The notes beneath the pieces are model-generated. The model had not been told where the DNA came from. It saw nothing but the letters and a program-made list of their open reading frames with translations, and did not search any database. DNA of 64,000 nucleotides from assembly GCA_903825315.1 (NCBI GenBank), contig CAIKAD010000002.1, forward strand, positions 186,001-250,000, read 5' to 3'. The position numbers were made by a program, and so were the translations under genes. This DNA is from an uncultured Candidatus Peregrinibacteria bacterium. GTDB lineage: Bacteria; Patescibacteriota; Gracilibacteria; Peribacterales; Peribacteraceae. Numbering within the stretch: the stretch's first letter is position 1; every line of letters starts with the position of its first letter. Positions 564 through 55,044 of the stretch are shown one piece after another.

Positions 564-682
564 GGAATCCGAAGAAACCGAAGAAACCCAGGAAACCGAG
601 GGGGTCGTCATGTATTCATCTCAGGTTTTGACATACATCATTCCTCGGATTCTTCGGATTCATCGGTTTCCTCGGTTTCTTC
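562..682. repeat. Quasi-palindromic spacer, 'gaaacc' family
   Basis: The left arm (562-602) is purine-rich and repeats words such as GGAATCCGAAG and GAAACCGA. The right arm (640-682) is their approximate reverse complement (CCTCGGATTCTTC, GGTTTCCTCGG). Together they can form an imperfect hairpin with arms of about 40 nt and a loop of about 40 nt. It lies between the TraC-like gene and the S1 promoter, so it may act as a terminator. A second member of this family is at 54881-54990. Confidence 0.7.
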
Positions 683-6754: not shown

Positions 6755-6801
6755 CCACGTAATAATCGCCTCTCGCTTCGCTGCGAGCGATTCTTACGTG
6801 G
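6755..6801. repeat. Long hairpin flanking the left end of the integrated element
   Basis: The 15-nt arms at 6755-6769 and 6787-6801 match at 14 of 15 positions (CCACGTAA-AATCGC type), with an inner CTCGC/GCGAG stem. The right arm runs into the copy of the tRNA-Gly 3' end at 6799. The rest of the gap 6648-6928 holds no convincing gene. Confidence 0.6.
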
Positions 6802-6821
6802 AGCGGGTTACTGGAATCTAT
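6799..6821. repeat. Putative left attachment site (copy of tRNA-Gly 3' end)
   Basis: On the minus strand this reads as a degenerate T-arm/acceptor end finishing in ACCCGCTCCAC. It differs from the genuine tRNA end at 13451-13473 at three positions. Confidence 0.65.
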
Positions 6822-7949: not shown

Positions 7950-8942
7950 TTATCGGCAACCCAAAGTCTGCTCATAGTAATGTAACCAAGCTGAGTCAGA
8001 AGTTAGGCCAAGCTGTCCCCCCCGTAATCGTTCGCGCTGGCACGCGAGATCGTGATTGGAAGTTGAAGGGGTATATGTCGGGGGGCGTGATTGTGAACTA
8101 GTAGTTGTAGAGTTTGATGACTGTGCTGCCTTCGCAATCGAGAGAAAGCGTTCGGCAATGTCATTACCGGCATCTAAGATGCTCGTAGTGACTGGCATTT
8201 CCGCAAGACGCAGTGTGCCGCCTTTCGCCTTGTCCCTATAGGTTTTCATCAAGGACACTTGTTCTGCGTATTGAGTTGAAAGCTGAAAGAGTTGCATGGC
8301 TGTGGAACCCGTATACTTCGGGAGCAACGAATCCATCTTGGTCTGCAATGCGACCATGGCATTGTAATCACTCTGTACGGATGCCAGATATTCTCTCTGC
8401 TTAGTCGCCGTGGATTGCAAATCGGCTTCTTCCAGTTTCTGCTGTTGCTGGAAGTCGAACGATGCCTGTTGTTCGACAGTGGGTGTACAGACCCGTTCCT
8501 GATTGCCGCCCCCGGGCATAAAGCATGTATTGCTGTCCGGGTAGCACTTGCAGATCTGAGTCCATTCCTTTCCGTTGTGAGTGCACGTCGAGCAGGCACT
8601 GCATACCCACTGGACGTCGCTTGCCCTCTTGCAACGAGGCTTCGCAGCGTCAGGAATTGAAGACGATAGAGACGATGAGGATGAAGAAGGGGCAGTTGGT
8701 TGTGTCGCAGGGGCAGACAATACACCTTGTCGCAATGCCCTTCTTGCCTTCGCCCTGTCTCTCGCCGAAGTTCTTGATCTCACGAGGACGGCGTTCGATC
8801 CACTAAGCCTCGCTGCTTTTCTCTCTTCCGCCCTGCCTCTCGCCGATGATGCGGCTATGACGGAAGTCACAGGCGCGGGGATGGATCCGACCAAGAGGAT
8901 GCTGCCAAGAAGCAGGACAGCTACACGACGGAAGGTAAGCAT
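7950..8942 (-). CDS. Secreted Cys-containing protein of integrated element
   Basis: 330 residues from the Met at 8942 (an in-frame start at 8996 would add 18 residues but would lie inside the structured region's arm). A signal peptide (VAVLLLGSILLVGSIPAPV) is followed by an Arg/Ser/Ala linker. A Cys cluster (about 95-150: VCSACSTCTHNG, CKCYPDSNTC) comes next, then a helical Gln-rich region and a Ser/Thr-rich stretch, ending in a short Cys-bearing tail. No family recognised. The style matches surface proteins elsewhere in this genome, such as the one at 63064-63618. Confidence 0.6.
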   Translation of the reverse strand: MLTFRRVAVLLLGSILLVGSIPAPVTSVIAASSARGRAEERKAARLSGSNAVLVRSRTSARDRAKARRALRQGVLSAPATQPTAPSSSSSSLSSSIPDAAKPRCKRASDVQWVCSACSTCTHNGKEWTQICKCYPDSNTCFMPGGGNQERVCTPTVEQQASFDFQQQQKLEEADLQSTATKQREYLASVQSDYNAMVALQTKMDSLLPKYTGSTAMQLFQLSTQYAEQVSLMKTYRDKAKGGTLRLAEMPVTTSILDAGNDIAERFLSIAKAAQSSNSTTTSSQSRPPTYTPSTSNHDLACQRERLRGGQLGLTSDSAWLHYYEQTLGCR

Positions 8943-8987
8943 ATACGTGGAGGGAATGAGATAACCAAGAAGGGACAGCCTGCTCGG

Positions 8988-9102
8988 TTGATCCAAGCTA
9001 CCCTCGGGTTTCCCCTTGGAACGCTTGACCGAGGCAGGACTGCCCCTTTCTGCGTTCCTTAGGGATTGGGCGGATACGAAATCCGCAGGTAACTTGGATC
9101 AA
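8988..9102. ncRNA. Candidate structured RNA or leader with multi-stem junction
   Basis: The outer arms TTGATCCAAGCTACC (8988-9002) and GGTAACTTGGATCAA (9088-9102) pair at 14 of 15 positions. Inside are CTCGG/CCGAG (9003-9007 with 9029-9033) and a perfect GCGGAT/ATCCGC hairpin (9070-9075 with 9081-9086). An alternative stem GGAACGC/GCGTTCC (9018-9024 with 9052-9058) conflicts with the CTCGG stem. It lies between divergent genes, so it could be a leader for either, most directly for the secreted protein on the minus strand. No known riboswitch consensus recognised. Confidence 0.5.
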
Positions 9103-10457: not shown

Positions 10458-11710
10458 ATAACAGGCAAGACTCCGTAGGAGAGACTGTCCCTGATTCAGC
10501 GGTGCGGACACATACTCCTAGCAGAGGTTCTACGCCCGTAGCATTGGCTGATGTTTTGGAACGGACGAAGCGTATCGGGCTTCTCGATGATGCACTCGTG
10601 GAGATAGTGCTGTCGGTCTATATCAGCAAGGAACTAGATCGCAGCAACCCGCTTTGGATGATGCTTGTGGGCAATCCTAGTTCAAATAAGACGCAGCTCG
10701 TGTCACTACTCTCGAAGGCACGCGATACCTACATGGTCGATGTCCTTACGACGAATCCGTTCATCTCCGGTTTGAGCAAAAAAGAAAAGCCCCAGGATTT
10801 GCTACCGTTGCTGAACGACAAGTGTTTCATCGTGAAGGACTTCACATCATTTTTCGGTAGAAGCGAAGAAACTGTCAAACAACTATTGAGTGACCTCGTA
10901 AGCATCTATGACGGTACGTTCAGCAAACATAGCGGGGCACGCGGTACGATCCGATACGAATCCACCTTCTCTCATATCGGTTGCATCACCCCGATGGGTC
11001 TTTCCATGCGTCAGCAGTACATGAACATGGTTGGCGCGCGTTTCCTGACGATCCGTGTGCCGGAACTACGCGAAGAACAACGCGCACAGTGCTTTGAAAT
11101 CGCATGGGCGCCTGACTTCAAGACAAGGGTCTCGGACGCAGCCGAGGCCGCTTCTGCCCTCGTTACGGCCATTTGTGACGGTATACGAGCCTACGGGGTG
11201 CAGCTTGCCCCCGTACCGAAGGCTATTCAGGACGATATCAATCTATTGGCTGAGCTGGTTGCCCGTGCCCGTGGGGAAGTCCGAACCCGCACGCAAAAGT
11301 TCGTGAATGAGGAAGGTGAGGAGATCAGCTACCAGGAAATTGAGGATGTGCAGGTAGAAGAACCCTTCCGTGCCATGCACCAGCTAAAAACACTTTGCTG
11401 TTCCCTGGCGATCCTCCGAGAGAAGGCGGAGGTCACTGCTGAGGAGGTAAAGACCGCCAAGCGTATTGCGCTTTCCTCCATGCCCGTGAGTCGTGCGGAG
11501 GTGCTCTCTGCATATCGCACGGAATCCAAGATGTCGGCAAAAGAAGTATCCGATGTTCTGGATAGGAACTATAAGACTATGAAACGCCATCTCGATCAAC
11601 TGCTTCACTTGAAAGTCTTGCGATCCGTAAAGGATGTGGATGGAAAAACCACCTTCTACTATCCCGATCCAAAGTTTGAAAAGCTCATTCTCAACGACTT
11701 CGTGCTATAA
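10439..11710 (+). CDS. AAA+ ATPase of integrated element, with C-terminal winged helix
   Basis: 423 residues from the ATG at 10439. A Walker A motif GNPSSNKTQL lies near residue 80. A Walker B-like stretch follows (LLPLLNDKCFIVKDF), then a sensor-like region (FSHIGCITPMG) and VGARFLTIRVPE. The C-terminal 70 residues look like a winged helix (SAKEVSDVLDRNYKTMKRHLDQL). The organisation recalls MCM-like or phage satellite helicase/primase ATPases, and replication or mobilisation of the element is the likely job. It is not a close match to any named family I know. Confidence 0.7.
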   Translation: MSEQQVNNRQDSVGETVPDSAVRTHTPSRGSTPVALADVLERTKRIGLLDDALVEIVLSVYISKELDRSNPLWMMLVGNPSSNKTQLVSLLSKARDTYMVDVLTTNPFISGLSKKEKPQDLLPLLNDKCFIVKDFTSFFGRSEETVKQLLSDLVSIYDGTFSKHSGARGTIRYESTFSHIGCITPMGLSMRQQYMNMVGARFLTIRVPELREEQRAQCFEIAWAPDFKTRVSDAAEAASALVTAICDGIRAYGVQLAPVPKAIQDDINLLAELVARARGEVRTRTQKFVNEEGEEISYQEIEDVQVEEPFRAMHQLKTLCCSLAILREKAEVTAEEVKTAKRIALSSMPVSRAEVLSAYRTESKMSAKEVSDVLDRNYKTMKRHLDQLLHLKVLRSVKDVDGKTTFYYPDPKFEKLILNDFVL

Positions 11711-11717
11711 TCCCTGC

Positions 11718-11814
11718 GGACTCACATCACCGATCTTGCGCTGTCGCTTTGCAATGCCGCCTAAGGGGCGGCCCTGCACAAAGGCGCAAGCTGATGTGAG
11801 TCCCAGGGCCGCCC
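11718..11814. ncRNA. Interleaved stems (pseudoknot or switch) before the recombinase gene
   Basis: A perfect 12-bp pair GGACTCACATCA/TGATGTGAGTCC (11718-11729 with 11792-11803) encloses further nested stems: CTTGCGC/GCGCAAG, CTTTG/CAAAG and GCCGCC/GGCGGC. A perfect 11-bp pair GGGCGGCCCTG/CAGGGCCGCCC (11766-11776 with 11804-11814) crosses the first pair. It also competes with the inner GCCGCC/GGCGGC hairpin. The order A-B-A'-B' means either a pseudoknot or two alternative folds. It lies 26 nt before the recombinase start codon and 7 nt after the ATPase stop codon. Confidence 0.65.
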
Positions 11815-11840
11815 TTTGGGCATTCATTCCTCTCTGAACT

Positions 11841-13463
11841 ATGAAAGTCATCATCTACAACCGCAAAAGCACCAAGGACAAAGAGGATCAACAAGTCCTC
11901 TCGATCCAAGGTCAGAAAGATGAAAACCATAAGCGCATCCAGCGCGAAGGTCATACCATCGTTCGAGAGTTCGATGAGGAATGGTCCGCGAAGAAGCCAG
12001 GCCGCCCGAAGTTTGCTGACATGCTCAAGCTGATTGAACAGGGCAAGGCGGAAGGCATCGTGTGCTGGAAGCTCAACCGCCTTGCTCGCAACCCGATTGA
12101 CGGAGGTCGCATCCAGTGGCTCCTGCAACAAGGGATCATCAAAGCCATTACCACGTGCGAAAAAACCTATCTCCCGAACGACAATGTTATCCAGATGTCC
12201 GTGGAATTTGGAATGGCTACGCAGTTCTCCATTGATCTCTCGAAAGATGTGAAACGTGGCATGCTCCAAAAGGCCAAAATGGGATGGAGACCGGGGAAAG
12301 CGACAGTGGGATACATGAATGACTACGCCGGAGTGAGGGGCGAAAAAACAATTCTCAAAGATCCTGAGCGGTTCGATCTCGTGAAGCGTTGTTGGGAATT
12401 ACTGCTAACTAAGGCGTATTCCGTGCCGCGTATCTTGGAAATCGCCACGGACGAGATGGGCTTAACGATGCGGGTCGGGAGGAAGAAAACACCGCGCTCC
12501 ATGGGCCTTTCGACGCTTTACGAGGTGTTTACCAACCCATTCTACTACGGGGAATTCGAGTGGGATGGAGAAATGTATCAAGGTTCGCATGAGCCGATGA
12601 TCACCAGGGAACAATTTGAGCTCGCACAATCCATCCTCGGTTCAAAGGGGAAGCCGCGCCGACGCAAGTATCTCAATGATTATCCCGGCCTCATGCGCTG
12701 CGGGGAATGCGGCTCAATGGTTGTGGTGAATGTGATAGAGAAGCTCATCAAATCCACCAATGAGTACAAGCGCTATCGATACTATCGCTGCCCTCACAAC
12801 AGGCCGCATGTTCCTTGCCATCAAAATAAGGCCATGTCGGAAGATGCATTGGAAAAGGAATTTGTAGAGAAAATCGACGCAGCCGACATTCCACAGTCAT
12901 TCATCGAGTGGGCGTTGGGCAAGCTAAAATACTCGCAAGAAGACCGCATAGCGCGGCATAAGAACACCCTGATGGCGCAACAGGGCAACTATAAGAAGAC
13001 GATTGAGAAGATAGACAAGCTCGTAGACCGTCAGCTTCTTGAAGAAACCCGTATCCCCGAAGAACTGTTCAATCAGAAACTTACGAGCCTCAACGCGGAA
13101 AAACAAAGGCTCAATAGCCTTATCCAAGATTTCGACGCATCGGCTTCGCAGTGGACGGAGGACATCGTGAACGAACTGAATTTCACCCTTCACCTTCGCC
13201 AGCGCTTCGCAGCAGCCAAACTCGACAGGGAGAAAGGCCGGGAAAAGCGCCTCGAAATCCTCCACAGGCTTGGCCAGACTATACAACTAAGGGACGGAGT
13301 GCTGGATTTTCGCATGAGGAACACATTTTCTACCCTTGCCCGTGGGAAACTCGATATGGAGAAGGTTCTTGCGTCTATACAACCGCTCTCCGTGCTAGAA
13401 AAACCGCTCATAGAGCTAGATTCACGTACATTTAAGAAAGTCGAAGGTGTGTGGAGCGGGTAA
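11841..13463 (+). CDS. Large serine recombinase
   Basis: 540 residues. The N-terminal resolvase domain (1-150) has YNRKST with the nucleophilic Ser at position 10, LSIQGQ, and KLNRLARNP with catalytic Arg residues. The recombinase domain follows (about 160-280). A zinc ribbon comes next (MRCGECGSMV ... YRCPH..... C, about 290-330), then a coiled coil (about 365-440). This is the typical large serine integrase layout and it presumably moves the surrounding element. The stop codon TAA (13461-13463) lies inside the tRNA-Gly acceptor end, 12 nt overlap counting the CCA. The structured element at 11718-11814 lies in its leader. Confidence 0.92.
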   Translation: MKVIIYNRKSTKDKEDQQVLSIQGQKDENHKRIQREGHTIVREFDEEWSAKKPGRPKFADMLKLIEQGKAEGIVCWKLNRLARNPIDGGRIQWLLQQGIIKAITTCEKTYLPNDNVIQMSVEFGMATQFSIDLSKDVKRGMLQKAKMGWRPGKATVGYMNDYAGVRGEKTILKDPERFDLVKRCWELLLTKAYSVPRILEIATDEMGLTMRVGRKKTPRSMGLSTLYEVFTNPFYYGEFEWDGEMYQGSHEPMITREQFELAQSILGSKGKPRRRKYLNDYPGLMRCGECGSMVVVNVIEKLIKSTNEYKRYRYYRCPHNRPHVPCHQNKAMSEDALEKEFVEKIDAADIPQSFIEWALGKLKYSQEDRIARHKNTLMAQQGNYKKTIEKIDKLVDRQLLEETRIPEELFNQKLTSLNAEKQRLNSLIQDFDASASQWTEDIVNELNFTLHLRQRFAAAKLDREKGREKRLEILHRLGQTIQLRDGVLDFRMRNTFSTLARGKLDMEKVLASIQPLSVLEKPLIELDSRTFKKVEGVWSG

Positions 13464-13473
13464 CGGGAATCGA
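13451..13473. repeat. Putative right attachment site (tRNA-Gly 3' end)
   Basis: Direct-repeat partner of 6799-6821, identical at 20 of 23 positions. It preserves a functional tRNA 3' end. Confidence 0.65.
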
Positions 13474-13526
13474 ACCCGTATCTTCAGCTTGGAAGGCTGA
13501 CGCACTAGCCATTGTGCGATACCCGC
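13452..13526 (-). tRNA. tRNA-Gly (anticodon TCC)
   Basis: On the minus strand the acceptor is GCGGGTA/TACCCGC, the D-stem GCAC/GTGC, the anticodon stem TCAGC/GCTGA with loop CTTCCAA (anticodon TCC), and the T-stem ACGGG/CCCGT with loop TTCGATT. Discriminator T and an encoded CCA give 75 nt in all. The 3' end overlaps the recombinase stop and forms the right boundary of the integrated element. Confidence 0.95.
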
Positions 13527-41210: not shown

Positions 41211-41792
41211 ATGACTAATAGGCCACTCAAAGAAGCAGTCCGGAATAACATTCGCAATCGCCTGTCCCAGCTGACAGATCGTGAGAAACGAGAGCAGGAA
41301 ACCGCCATCTGCATCCGTCTTCTTGAGTGTCTTCCTCACCATCCCACGGCCATCTGTGCCTACGCCCCCCTTTCCGACGAGCCGGACATCAGCAGGGTTC
41401 TTGCCGCACTTCTCCAGCGCGACATTCCCCTCTTCCTTCCGCGCTTTGATGATCAGAAAGTGACATTCCACCGCATCACCTCTCTTGATGCGCTTCGGCC
41501 GGGAACGTTTGGAATTGCCGAGCCACCACGCGAGAATCCGGCACCCGATCCGATGGCCATCTCCCATGTCCTTGTCCCAGGCCGTGCGTTCGATTATCAC
41601 ATGAACCGTCTGGGACGTGGAAAAGCGGGTTATGATGTCTGGATCCGCAGGCAGCGGAAAGTGCATCCAAAGACACAATTCTGGGGTATAGCATTCGAGG
41701 AACAGATTGTGGATGCCGTACCCGTCGATGGCCATGATGAACGGATGGATAGGGTGATTACACCCGCTGGGAATATTGGAGTATTGGAATAA
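41211..41792 (+). CDS. 5-formyltetrahydrofolate cyclo-ligase
   Basis: 193 residues. ATP-dependent enzyme making 5,10-methenyl-THF from 5-formyl-THF. Family features: VRNNIRNRLSQLT, Y-x-P-x-S-D-E-P pattern (YAPLSDEPDIS), LVPGRAFDYHMNRLGRGKAGYD (the glycine-rich VPG...D...RLG.G.GYYD motif), then GIAFEEQIVDAVPVDGHD. Its last codons and stop are formed by the start of the repeat at 41768. It sits just before glyA, so the two serve one-carbon folate metabolism. Confidence 0.9.
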   Translation: MTNRPLKEAVRNNIRNRLSQLTDREKREQETAICIRLLECLPHHPTAICAYAPLSDEPDISRVLAALLQRDIPLFLPRFDDQKVTFHRITSLDALRPGTFGIAEPPRENPAPDPMAISHVLVPGRAFDYHMNRLGRGKAGYDVWIRRQRKVHPKTQFWGIAFEEQIVDAVPVDGHDERMDRVITPAGNIGVLE

Positions 41793-41878
41793 TGGAATAT
41801 TGAGGACATCGTGTATGGAGTAGAGAAGCGATTATTCCGTTTCCCAATATTCGAATGCTCCAATATTCCAATACTCCT
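41768..41878. repeat. Quasi-palindromic spacer, 'gaatattgg' family
   Basis: Left arm GGGAATATTGGAGTATTGG and ATAATGGAATATTG; right arm CCCAATATTCGAATGC, CCAATATTCCAATACTCC. The left arm supplies the end of the cyclo-ligase coding sequence (NIGVLE and stop). Confidence 0.8.
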
Positions 41879-44181: not shown

Positions 44182-44642
44182 GAAACCTCAACAACGGGTT
44201 TCAAGACACCCATACAAACACTCCCGGGCCCGGGAAACCTCCTGATCCTTACCATCACCGACTCATGCAGAGAGAAGGAAAGCCATGGACAAGCTAAACG
44301 TTCCTCTCAGCCACCAATCGCTTCACTTGCGCTTCCTGAGCCAGTGATCGTCTTGGCCCCCGTGGCTTGCCTCCTCTCTGCTCTGCGAAATCGTCCGTCC
44401 CGGCTGAGGATGCCGGGATGGAGCGTCTCCCGCCCTCCCCAGTGCCCCCTTTGGTCTATAGACCTTGCGGTGAGCCATTACGGGGACCTCACCGGGTTAT
44501 GAGGATAAACGAGAACCCCCTGCAGGGCAGCGATCGGGATCCTCCCCACTCTCTCCTTCTGTCGTTTCCGGGGCCAAACGAGCCCTCTCAAACACAGAGA
44601 CATACAAAGACAAAGACCGGACCGTGCGTTCGGTCTTTTCTT
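44182..44642 (+). ncRNA. Candidate structured non-coding RNA
   Basis: About 460 nt with a promoter before and a terminator after, but no convincing gene. Stems in order: GAAACC/GGTTTC (44182/44197), the palindrome CCCGGGCCCGGG (about 44223-44234), and a 22-nt stem (44267-44288 with 44360-44381, about 20 pairs). After these come a 10-bp stem CCGTCCCGGC/GCCGGGATGG (about 44395-44421), GGTCTATAGACC, and GGTGAG/CTCACC. A 93-residue frame at 44367-44648 is Pro-rich and has no start signals. The segment AAGGAAAGCCATGGAC vaguely recalls the RNase P P4 strand, but the rest of that consensus is not found. Family unassigned. Confidence 0.45.
44612..44642 (+). terminator. Terminator of structured interval
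   Basis: AAAGACCG (44612-44619) pairs with CGGTCTTT (44631-44638), followed by TCTT. Confidence 0.6.
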
Positions 44643-44644
44643 GA

Positions 44645-44765
44645 ATGAAACGGATGCAGAGGAATCAGAAGATGCAGAAGAAATGGAGGAATAACAGTAA
44701 AACTCCGAGGATCGCAAGGCTCCCATTGCTCTGTTTCCTCTGATCCCTCTGCATCTTCTGCATCC
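44645..44765. repeat. Quasi-palindromic spacer, 'gatgcagagg' family
   Basis: Left arm ACGGATGCAGAGGAATCAG and AAGATGCAGAAG words; right arm TTTCCTCTGATCC and CTCTGCATCTTCTGCATCC. It lies at the 3' end of the VirD4-like gene. Confidence 0.75.
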
Positions 44766-54880: not shown

Positions 54881-54990
54881 ACAGAAACCGAGGAAACCAA
54901 AGAATCCGAAGGATACTTCTTCCCTGTCCTACTAGTACAACAACAACTGCCCCTCGGATGCATCGGATCCCTCGGTTTCTTCGGCTTCCC
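54881..54990. repeat. Quasi-palindromic spacer, 'gaaacc' family
   Basis: Left arm CAGAAACCGAGGAAACC and AAGAATCCGAAGG; right arm CCTCGGATGCATCGGATCC and CTCGGTTTCTTCGGC. Unusually it lies between divergent genes (M23 peptidase and ruvA), which argues against a simple terminator role. Confidence 0.75.
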
Positions 54991-55044
54991 CTCCGATTCC
55001 CCAAAAACTTCCACCCGCTCCGACCCCAGTGCTATCCTCCCCCC

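What the first reader, a model, noticed from the sequence alone, without database searches (positions are those of the whole stretch)
11718..11814. Mutually exclusive interleaved stems just upstream of the recombinase gene
A perfect 12-bp stem and a perfect 11-bp stem are arranged A-B-A'-B', with further nested stems inside the first. One fold must exclude the other unless a pseudoknot forms. Lying between the ATPase stop and the recombinase start, it could switch recombinase expression, act as a processing signal, or be a DNA structure used in recombination or replication of the element.
Basis: seen in the sequence. Interest (0 to 1): 0.7.

Follow-up and report, generated by a model that had tools for sequence, protein, structure and literature searches.

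The report
TSS-anchored pseudoknot leaders on mobile element
The knotted hairpin in front of this recombinase gene is one member of a large, apparently undescribed family of RNA folds at the very start of mRNAs on mobile elements of Patescibacteria (tiny, mostly uncultured bacteria), and it probably sets how strongly those genes are expressed.

Summary
A (11718-11729)/A' (11792-11803) is a perfect 12-bp stem. B (11766-11776)/B' (11804-11814) is a perfect 11-bp stem, extendable to 18 bp. The same layout precedes serine-recombinase genes across Patescibacteria, with heavy compensatory change in both stems. Covariance models found it in 26 of 353 genomes of the class (model R1) and 40 of 379 sampled from the phylum (R2). 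A -10 box lies exactly at -12..-7 relative to stem A, so transcription should start at its first base. A' and B' abut with no gap in 54 of 71 copies. G.U pairs greatly outnumber A.C mismatches, so this is an RNA structure on the + strand, not a DNA palindrome. The inferred attachment sites lie elsewhere. The same RNA also leads other genes (restriction-modification, secreted or membrane proteins). The window's element carries a second copy, on the minus strand at about 9100-8965, leading a secreted cargo protein. No Rfam match and no paper was found. Best explanation: a 5'-leader RNA controlling expression in cis, in which A and B stack into a pseudoknot sealing the 5' end while the loop stems compete with B. 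Leader identity is well supported; the sign of regulation and the trigger are unknown.

The parts
11706..11711 (+). -10 box TATAAT; last base is -7 relative to the first base of stem A
   Evidence: Sequence; same position in 33 aligned loci: T-12 28/33, A-11 30/33, T-7 30/33
11718..11729 (+). Stem A (5' strand of P1); 11718 is the inferred transcription start
11735..11742 (+). P2, 5' strand
   Evidence: Fold; covarying in relatives
11750..11753 (+). P3, 5' strand
   Evidence: Fold; P3 in relatives
11759..11776 (+). B, extended 5' strand of the pseudoknot helix (11-bp core 11766-11776); alternatively pairs inside the loop as P4 (11756-11762 with 11766-11772)
11775..11778 (+). P3, 3' strand
11783..11790 (+). 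P2, 3' strand
11792..11803 (+). A' (3' strand of P1)
11804..11821 (+). B', 3' strand of the pseudoknot helix, abutting A' with no linker; contains CCCTTTGGG
11841..13463 (+). Large serine recombinase led by this RNA (P0001)
   Evidence: Pfam Resolvase, Recombinase, Zn_ribbon_recom
8965..9101 (-). Second RNA of the same architecture: -10 TATTAT 9112-9107, P1 about 9101-9088/9002-8989, B about 9046-9027, B' about 8988-8972
   Evidence: scanner score 85
7950..8942 (-). Cargo gene behind the second RNA; 330-aa protein with an N-terminal signal-like segment (P0003)
   Evidence: no Pfam or NCBIfam hit for the longer reading 7950-8996
6798..6818 (.). Probable attL: 19 of 21 match to the tRNA-Gly 3' end
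13451..13476 (.). Probable attR at the tRNA-Gly gene (13452-13526, minus strand)

Best explanation
This is a structured 5'-leader RNA that controls, in cis, expression of the gene behind it. The mobile element uses two copies: one for its serine recombinase (+ strand) and one for a divergent cargo gene (minus strand). Transcription starts at the first base of stem A. The nascent RNA first forms a long hairpin (P1-P2-P3, with B held in the apical loop or P4). When B' emerges directly after A', it can invade the loop and pair with B over up to 18-19 bp. The resulting pseudoknot stacks B on P1 with no linker and places the 5' end at the helical junction; P3/P4 must then open. The equilibrium between hairpin and pseudoknot sets transcript yield: through a terminator-like B' plus U-tract (5-8 U in several cargo leaders, 3-4 in most recombinase leaders), through protection of a sealed 5' end, and/or through a rigid helix that usually ends within about 35 nt of a start codon lacking a Shine-Dalgarno sequence. 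Shown: both helices, RNA-level conservation, anchoring to a predicted start site, position upstream of genes, two copies per element. Inferred: refolding, effect on expression, and its sign. Unknown: the trigger.
For: Covariation in both stems: 20 pairs with double changes against 7.5 in shuffles; in class and phylum relatives 33 against 22.8, covariation score 0.453 against 0.231, B core essentially always paired. G.U 84 against A.C 9. The B helix extends past the U-tract: 5.54 of 8 extra pairs against 4.20 +/- 0.13 when 3' strands are swapped between copies. -10 box at fixed distance in 33 loci. Abutting A'/B' in 54 of 71. Energy of P1/P2 frame plus B duplex is below the best nested fold, -69.4 against -55.5 kcal/mol here, before a pseudoknot penalty. 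Copies lie directly upstream of ORFs: recombinases, methyltransferases or type IIG enzymes, an SLH-nuclease protein, membrane or secreted proteins. Second copy in the same element in this window and in several others. The closest recombinase homologue, L003 (59% identity), lacks the RNA and has its TATAAT box close to the start codon, so the leader is a removable module.
Against: No expression, RNA-seq or probing data. The trigger, and even whether the leader raises or lowers expression, is unknown. In the window the U-tract is only 3 U, weak as a terminator. The distance from B' to the start codon varies (one leader 85 nt), which argues against simple occlusion of the start. L122 has no clear gene behind it, which would fit an independent RNA. 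The full B helix and P3 cannot coexist, so any 3D model is uncertain.
Confidence: 0.68

Rival explanations
1. Trans-acting small RNA: the promoter, the sealed 5' end and the U-tract after B' define an independent ncRNA of about 105-150 nt encoded on these elements, acting on another molecule; downstream genes are read through from its promoter.
For: Own promoter; U-tract of up to 8 in some copies; variable distance to the start codon; L122 without an ORF behind it.
Against: Nearly every copy lies directly upstream of an ORF on the same strand. No separate promoter was seen between B' and the recombinase start here (20 nt). The B helix extends past the U-tract, so read-through RNA is under selection. 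B differs between two copies on one element, e.g. L083.
Confidence: 0.15
2. Guide or structural RNA partner of the serine recombinase, comparable to bridge RNA of IS110 or omega RNA of TnpB.
For: Frequent position directly upstream of recombinase genes.
Against: Also leads methyltransferases, nucleases and membrane proteins. Variable positions sit in compensated stems; no long unpaired variable guide region is apparent in the alignments. The closest homologue L003 lacks it.
Confidence: 0.04
3. 5'-end protector only (like the ompA 5' stem-loop): a static pseudoknot that shields the mRNA from 5'-dependent decay, without switching.
For: First transcribed base predicted to be paired in the copies examined; pseudoknot predicted more stable than the hairpin.
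Against: Does not by itself explain the conserved loop stems P3/P4 or the U-tract; a simple hairpin would be enough.
Confidence: 0.2
4. DNA-level feature: recombinase binding site, attP or replication structure.
For: Inverted repeats next to a recombinase gene.
Against: G.U far above A.C; fixed to a promoter; att repeats lie at 6798-6818 and at the tRNA-Gly; present upstream of non-recombinase genes.
Confidence: 0.03

Closest known systems
Pseudoknotted riboswitches and attenuators (e.g. preQ1, SAM-II, fluoride)
   Same: 5' leader, pseudoknot between a hairpin loop and a 3' strand, two alternative folds, U-tract or start codon downstream
   Different: No ligand known; no Rfam match; 5' end built into the helical junction; 18-19 bp pseudoknot helix; found on mobile-element genes
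ompA-type 5'-terminal stabilising stem-loop (own knowledge)
   Same: Stem starts at the first transcribed base
   Different: Pseudoknot, phylum-wide covariation, U-tract after B'
c4 antisense RNA of phages P1/P7 (own knowledge)
   Same: Loop sequence complementary to a strand further down the same transcript, before the regulated gene
   Different: The complementary strand directly abuts the hairpin, and pairing appears to be in cis
IS110 bridge RNA / IS607 TnpB reRNA
   Same: Structured RNA encoded beside a mobile-element gene
   Different: No apparent variable guide loop; not tied to one protein family

Membership tests
Any described RNA family (Rfam 15) | Score above the gathering threshold | tested here: not met
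   Window and 20 relatives: no match to any RNA family except tRNAs in the window
Cis-regulatory structured leader | Conserved RNA structure with covariation | tested here: met
Cis-regulatory structured leader | Own promoter, same strand, directly upstream of genes | tested here: met
Cis-regulatory structured leader | Changes expression of the downstream gene | not testable with these tools
   Needs reporter assay
Intrinsic-terminator attenuator | GC-rich stem followed by a long U-tract, with an alternative anti-terminator pairing | tested here: inconclusive
   3-4 U in most recombinase leaders, 4-8 in other genes' leaders; B helix extends beyond the U-tract
Riboswitch | Binds a ligand | not testable with these tools
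   In-line probing needed
Bridge RNA / omega RNA guide | Dedicated partner of one recombinase or nuclease family | tested here: not met
   Upstream of methyltransferases and membrane proteins too; missing in L003
Bridge RNA / omega RNA guide | Unpaired variable guide segment matching target DNA | tested here: inconclusive
   None apparent in the alignments; no systematic match of RNA to att sites was run
Serine-integrase attP | Shares core with attL/attR | tested here: not met
   Core GTGGAGCGGGT lies at 6799 and 13452, outside the structure

The most novel reading that the evidence does not exclude
A new class of gene-control RNA in which the 5' end of the transcript is itself a structural element. 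Only RNA started at the element's own promoter would fold correctly, so the leader could tell own transcripts from read-through transcripts and act as an element-wide control of integration and cargo genes, or as a start signal for translation in bacteria that mostly lack Shine-Dalgarno sequences.
Probability: 0.15. Interest if true: 0.9.

Novelty: new variant of a known kind. Interest (0 to 1): 0.68.

Why it matters
It is a structured RNA seen in roughly one tenth of the sampled Patescibacteria genomes, a phylum for which the review checked here mentions no natural riboswitch or leader RNA. It appears to control mobile elements that carry recombinases, restriction-modification systems and secreted proteins. 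It gives a ready test set of about 70 natural variants for how a transcript's 5' end can be built into a pseudoknot, and a handle on gene expression in bacteria whose genes mostly lack Shine-Dalgarno sequences.

Tried and rejected
Rfam at gathering and loose thresholds: only chance hits at this site. Attachment site: att repeats are elsewhere. An empty site in the genus was not found; the left flank has no match in the three sister genomes. Viral contigs: recombinase scans gave no relatives, and a pattern scan gave 13 matches without the structure. Phage and plasmid collections: no DNA match. Lack of Shine-Dalgarno as a special trait: rejected, because these genomes mostly lack it. R2 hits L161 and L163 overlap coding sequence and score no better than shuffles, so they are chance. 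Other A-B-A'-B' scan hits in the window (566-682, 41771-41852, 44267-44764) look like repetitive inverted repeats without the promoter; 54910-55038 was not read. Papers: nothing relevant.

Full report
What is there. The window lies in a genome of 1.29 Mb whose relatives are labelled Candidatus Peribacteraceae / Patescibacteria. At 11718-11821 four segments run A, B, A', B'. A/A' is a perfect 12-bp stem; B/B' is a perfect 11-bp stem that continues to 18 nt. Inside A lie further stems P2, P3 and P4. The fold is far more stable than shuffles (z = -6.5), and the combined two-helix score is 76 against at most 38 in shuffles.

It is conserved as RNA. Homologues of the recombinase (46-53% identity) in the same family carry the same layout directly upstream. 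On seven of them 94.5% of cells pair and 20 of 45 pairs show changes on both sides, none of 500 shuffles reaching this. A covariance model (R1) built on the P1-P2-P3 stems found copies in 15 of 74 family genomes and 26 of 353 class genomes, and in more distant members of the phylum. A second model (R2) from 16 class and phylum copies found 40 of 379 phylum and 35 of 341 class genomes; both models' tallies include some weak hits, and two R2 hits that were examined are chance. Among those 16 copies the B core is essentially always paired while its bases change. G.U pairs number 84 and A.C mismatches 9 in P1 and B, which a DNA palindrome would not give; the choice of register slightly favours G.U, but mismatches penalised equally to A.C are also few.

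It starts at the transcript's first base. Aligned on stem A, 33 loci show TATAAT at -12 to -7 (A-11 and T-7 in 30 of 33) and a pyrimidine at -1 in 31 of 33. A' and B' abut with no spacer in 54 of 71 copies. Abutment argues that P1 and B coexist and stack, with the 5' end at the junction. The B helix continues past the U-tract, which swapping 3' strands between copies does not reproduce. A full 18-19 bp B helix cannot coexist with P3, whose loop is B, so a change of state between loop stems and pseudoknot is implied by geometry (inference). Energies favour the pseudoknot in recombinase leaders by about 7-25 kcal/mol before a penalty of roughly 9 kcal/mol, less in some cargo leaders (the penalty is my estimate).

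It is not tied to recombinases. R2 also hits leaders of type III methyltransferases, a type IIG enzyme, a candidate defence nuclease, an SLH-nuclease-lamin-tail protein and several membrane or secreted proteins. Several elements carry two copies, usually divergent, one for the recombinase and one for cargo. The window's own element is of this kind: the second copy runs leftward from about 9100 on the minus strand and precedes a 330-aa protein with a signal-like N-terminus at 8942-7950. An architecture scan (promoter, P1, abutting B, U-tract) found only these two sites in the whole window, and none in the reversed or complemented window or in 163,078 strand-bases of viral DNA.

The element. Repeats of the tRNA-Gly 3' end at 6798-6818 and 13451-13476 suggest an element of about 6.66 kb integrated at the tRNA gene. 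This rests on a 19 of 21 match and was not confirmed by an empty site. The RNA is not at either end.

How it most likely works. Transcription starts at stem A, the hairpin folds, B' emerges and can capture B. The outcome sets yield of the mRNA. Three non-exclusive routes fit the anatomy: termination at the U-tract (5-8 U in several cargo leaders, weak here), a sealed 5' end, or a helix close to the start codon. Start codons mostly lie 3 to 43 nt after the 18-nt B' (two automatic start calls, L055 and L072, may be too early), without Shine-Dalgarno, as is general in these genomes; leaderless starts seem common. The homologue L003 has lost or never had the leader and keeps a TATAAT close to its start codon, showing a removable module. 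Which route dominates, and what triggers it, is not known.

Novelty. No Rfam 15 family matches, no DNA match in phage or plasmid records, and no paper found in the open library. The kind of thing, a pseudoknotted leader RNA, is known; the anchoring of the 5' end, the abutting helices and the pairing on mobile elements make it a new variant. Subscription literature and preprints were not searchable, and phyla outside Patescibacteria were only touched through viral, phage and plasmid collections.

Noticed in passing
window 8965-9101 (minus strand): Second RNA of the same architecture, leading a secreted cargo protein in the same element.
   Followed up: yes
L019-L028, about 250 nt upstream of the recombinase: More distant serine recombinases (28-35% identity) have another GC-rich, apparently conserved leader with hairpins that does not match this architecture; possibly a second leader family.
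   Followed up: partly
L006, L008, L009 upstream of the RNA: The gene before the RNA ends like a truncated serine-recombinase catalytic domain.
   Followed up: no
L056:1038-1475 (minus strand): A short, weak match to a resolvase N-terminal domain directly behind the RNA, followed by a full recombinase.
   Followed up: no
window 13440-13476: The recombinase stop codon lies inside the 3' end of the tRNA-Gly gene, which is the probable attachment site.
   Followed up: partly
window 566-682, 41771-41852, 44267-44764: Long, repetitive-looking inverted repeats between genes, unrelated to this RNA.
   Followed up: partly
L122:1501-1650: A copy of the RNA without a clear gene behind it; possible independent RNA.
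   Followed up: no
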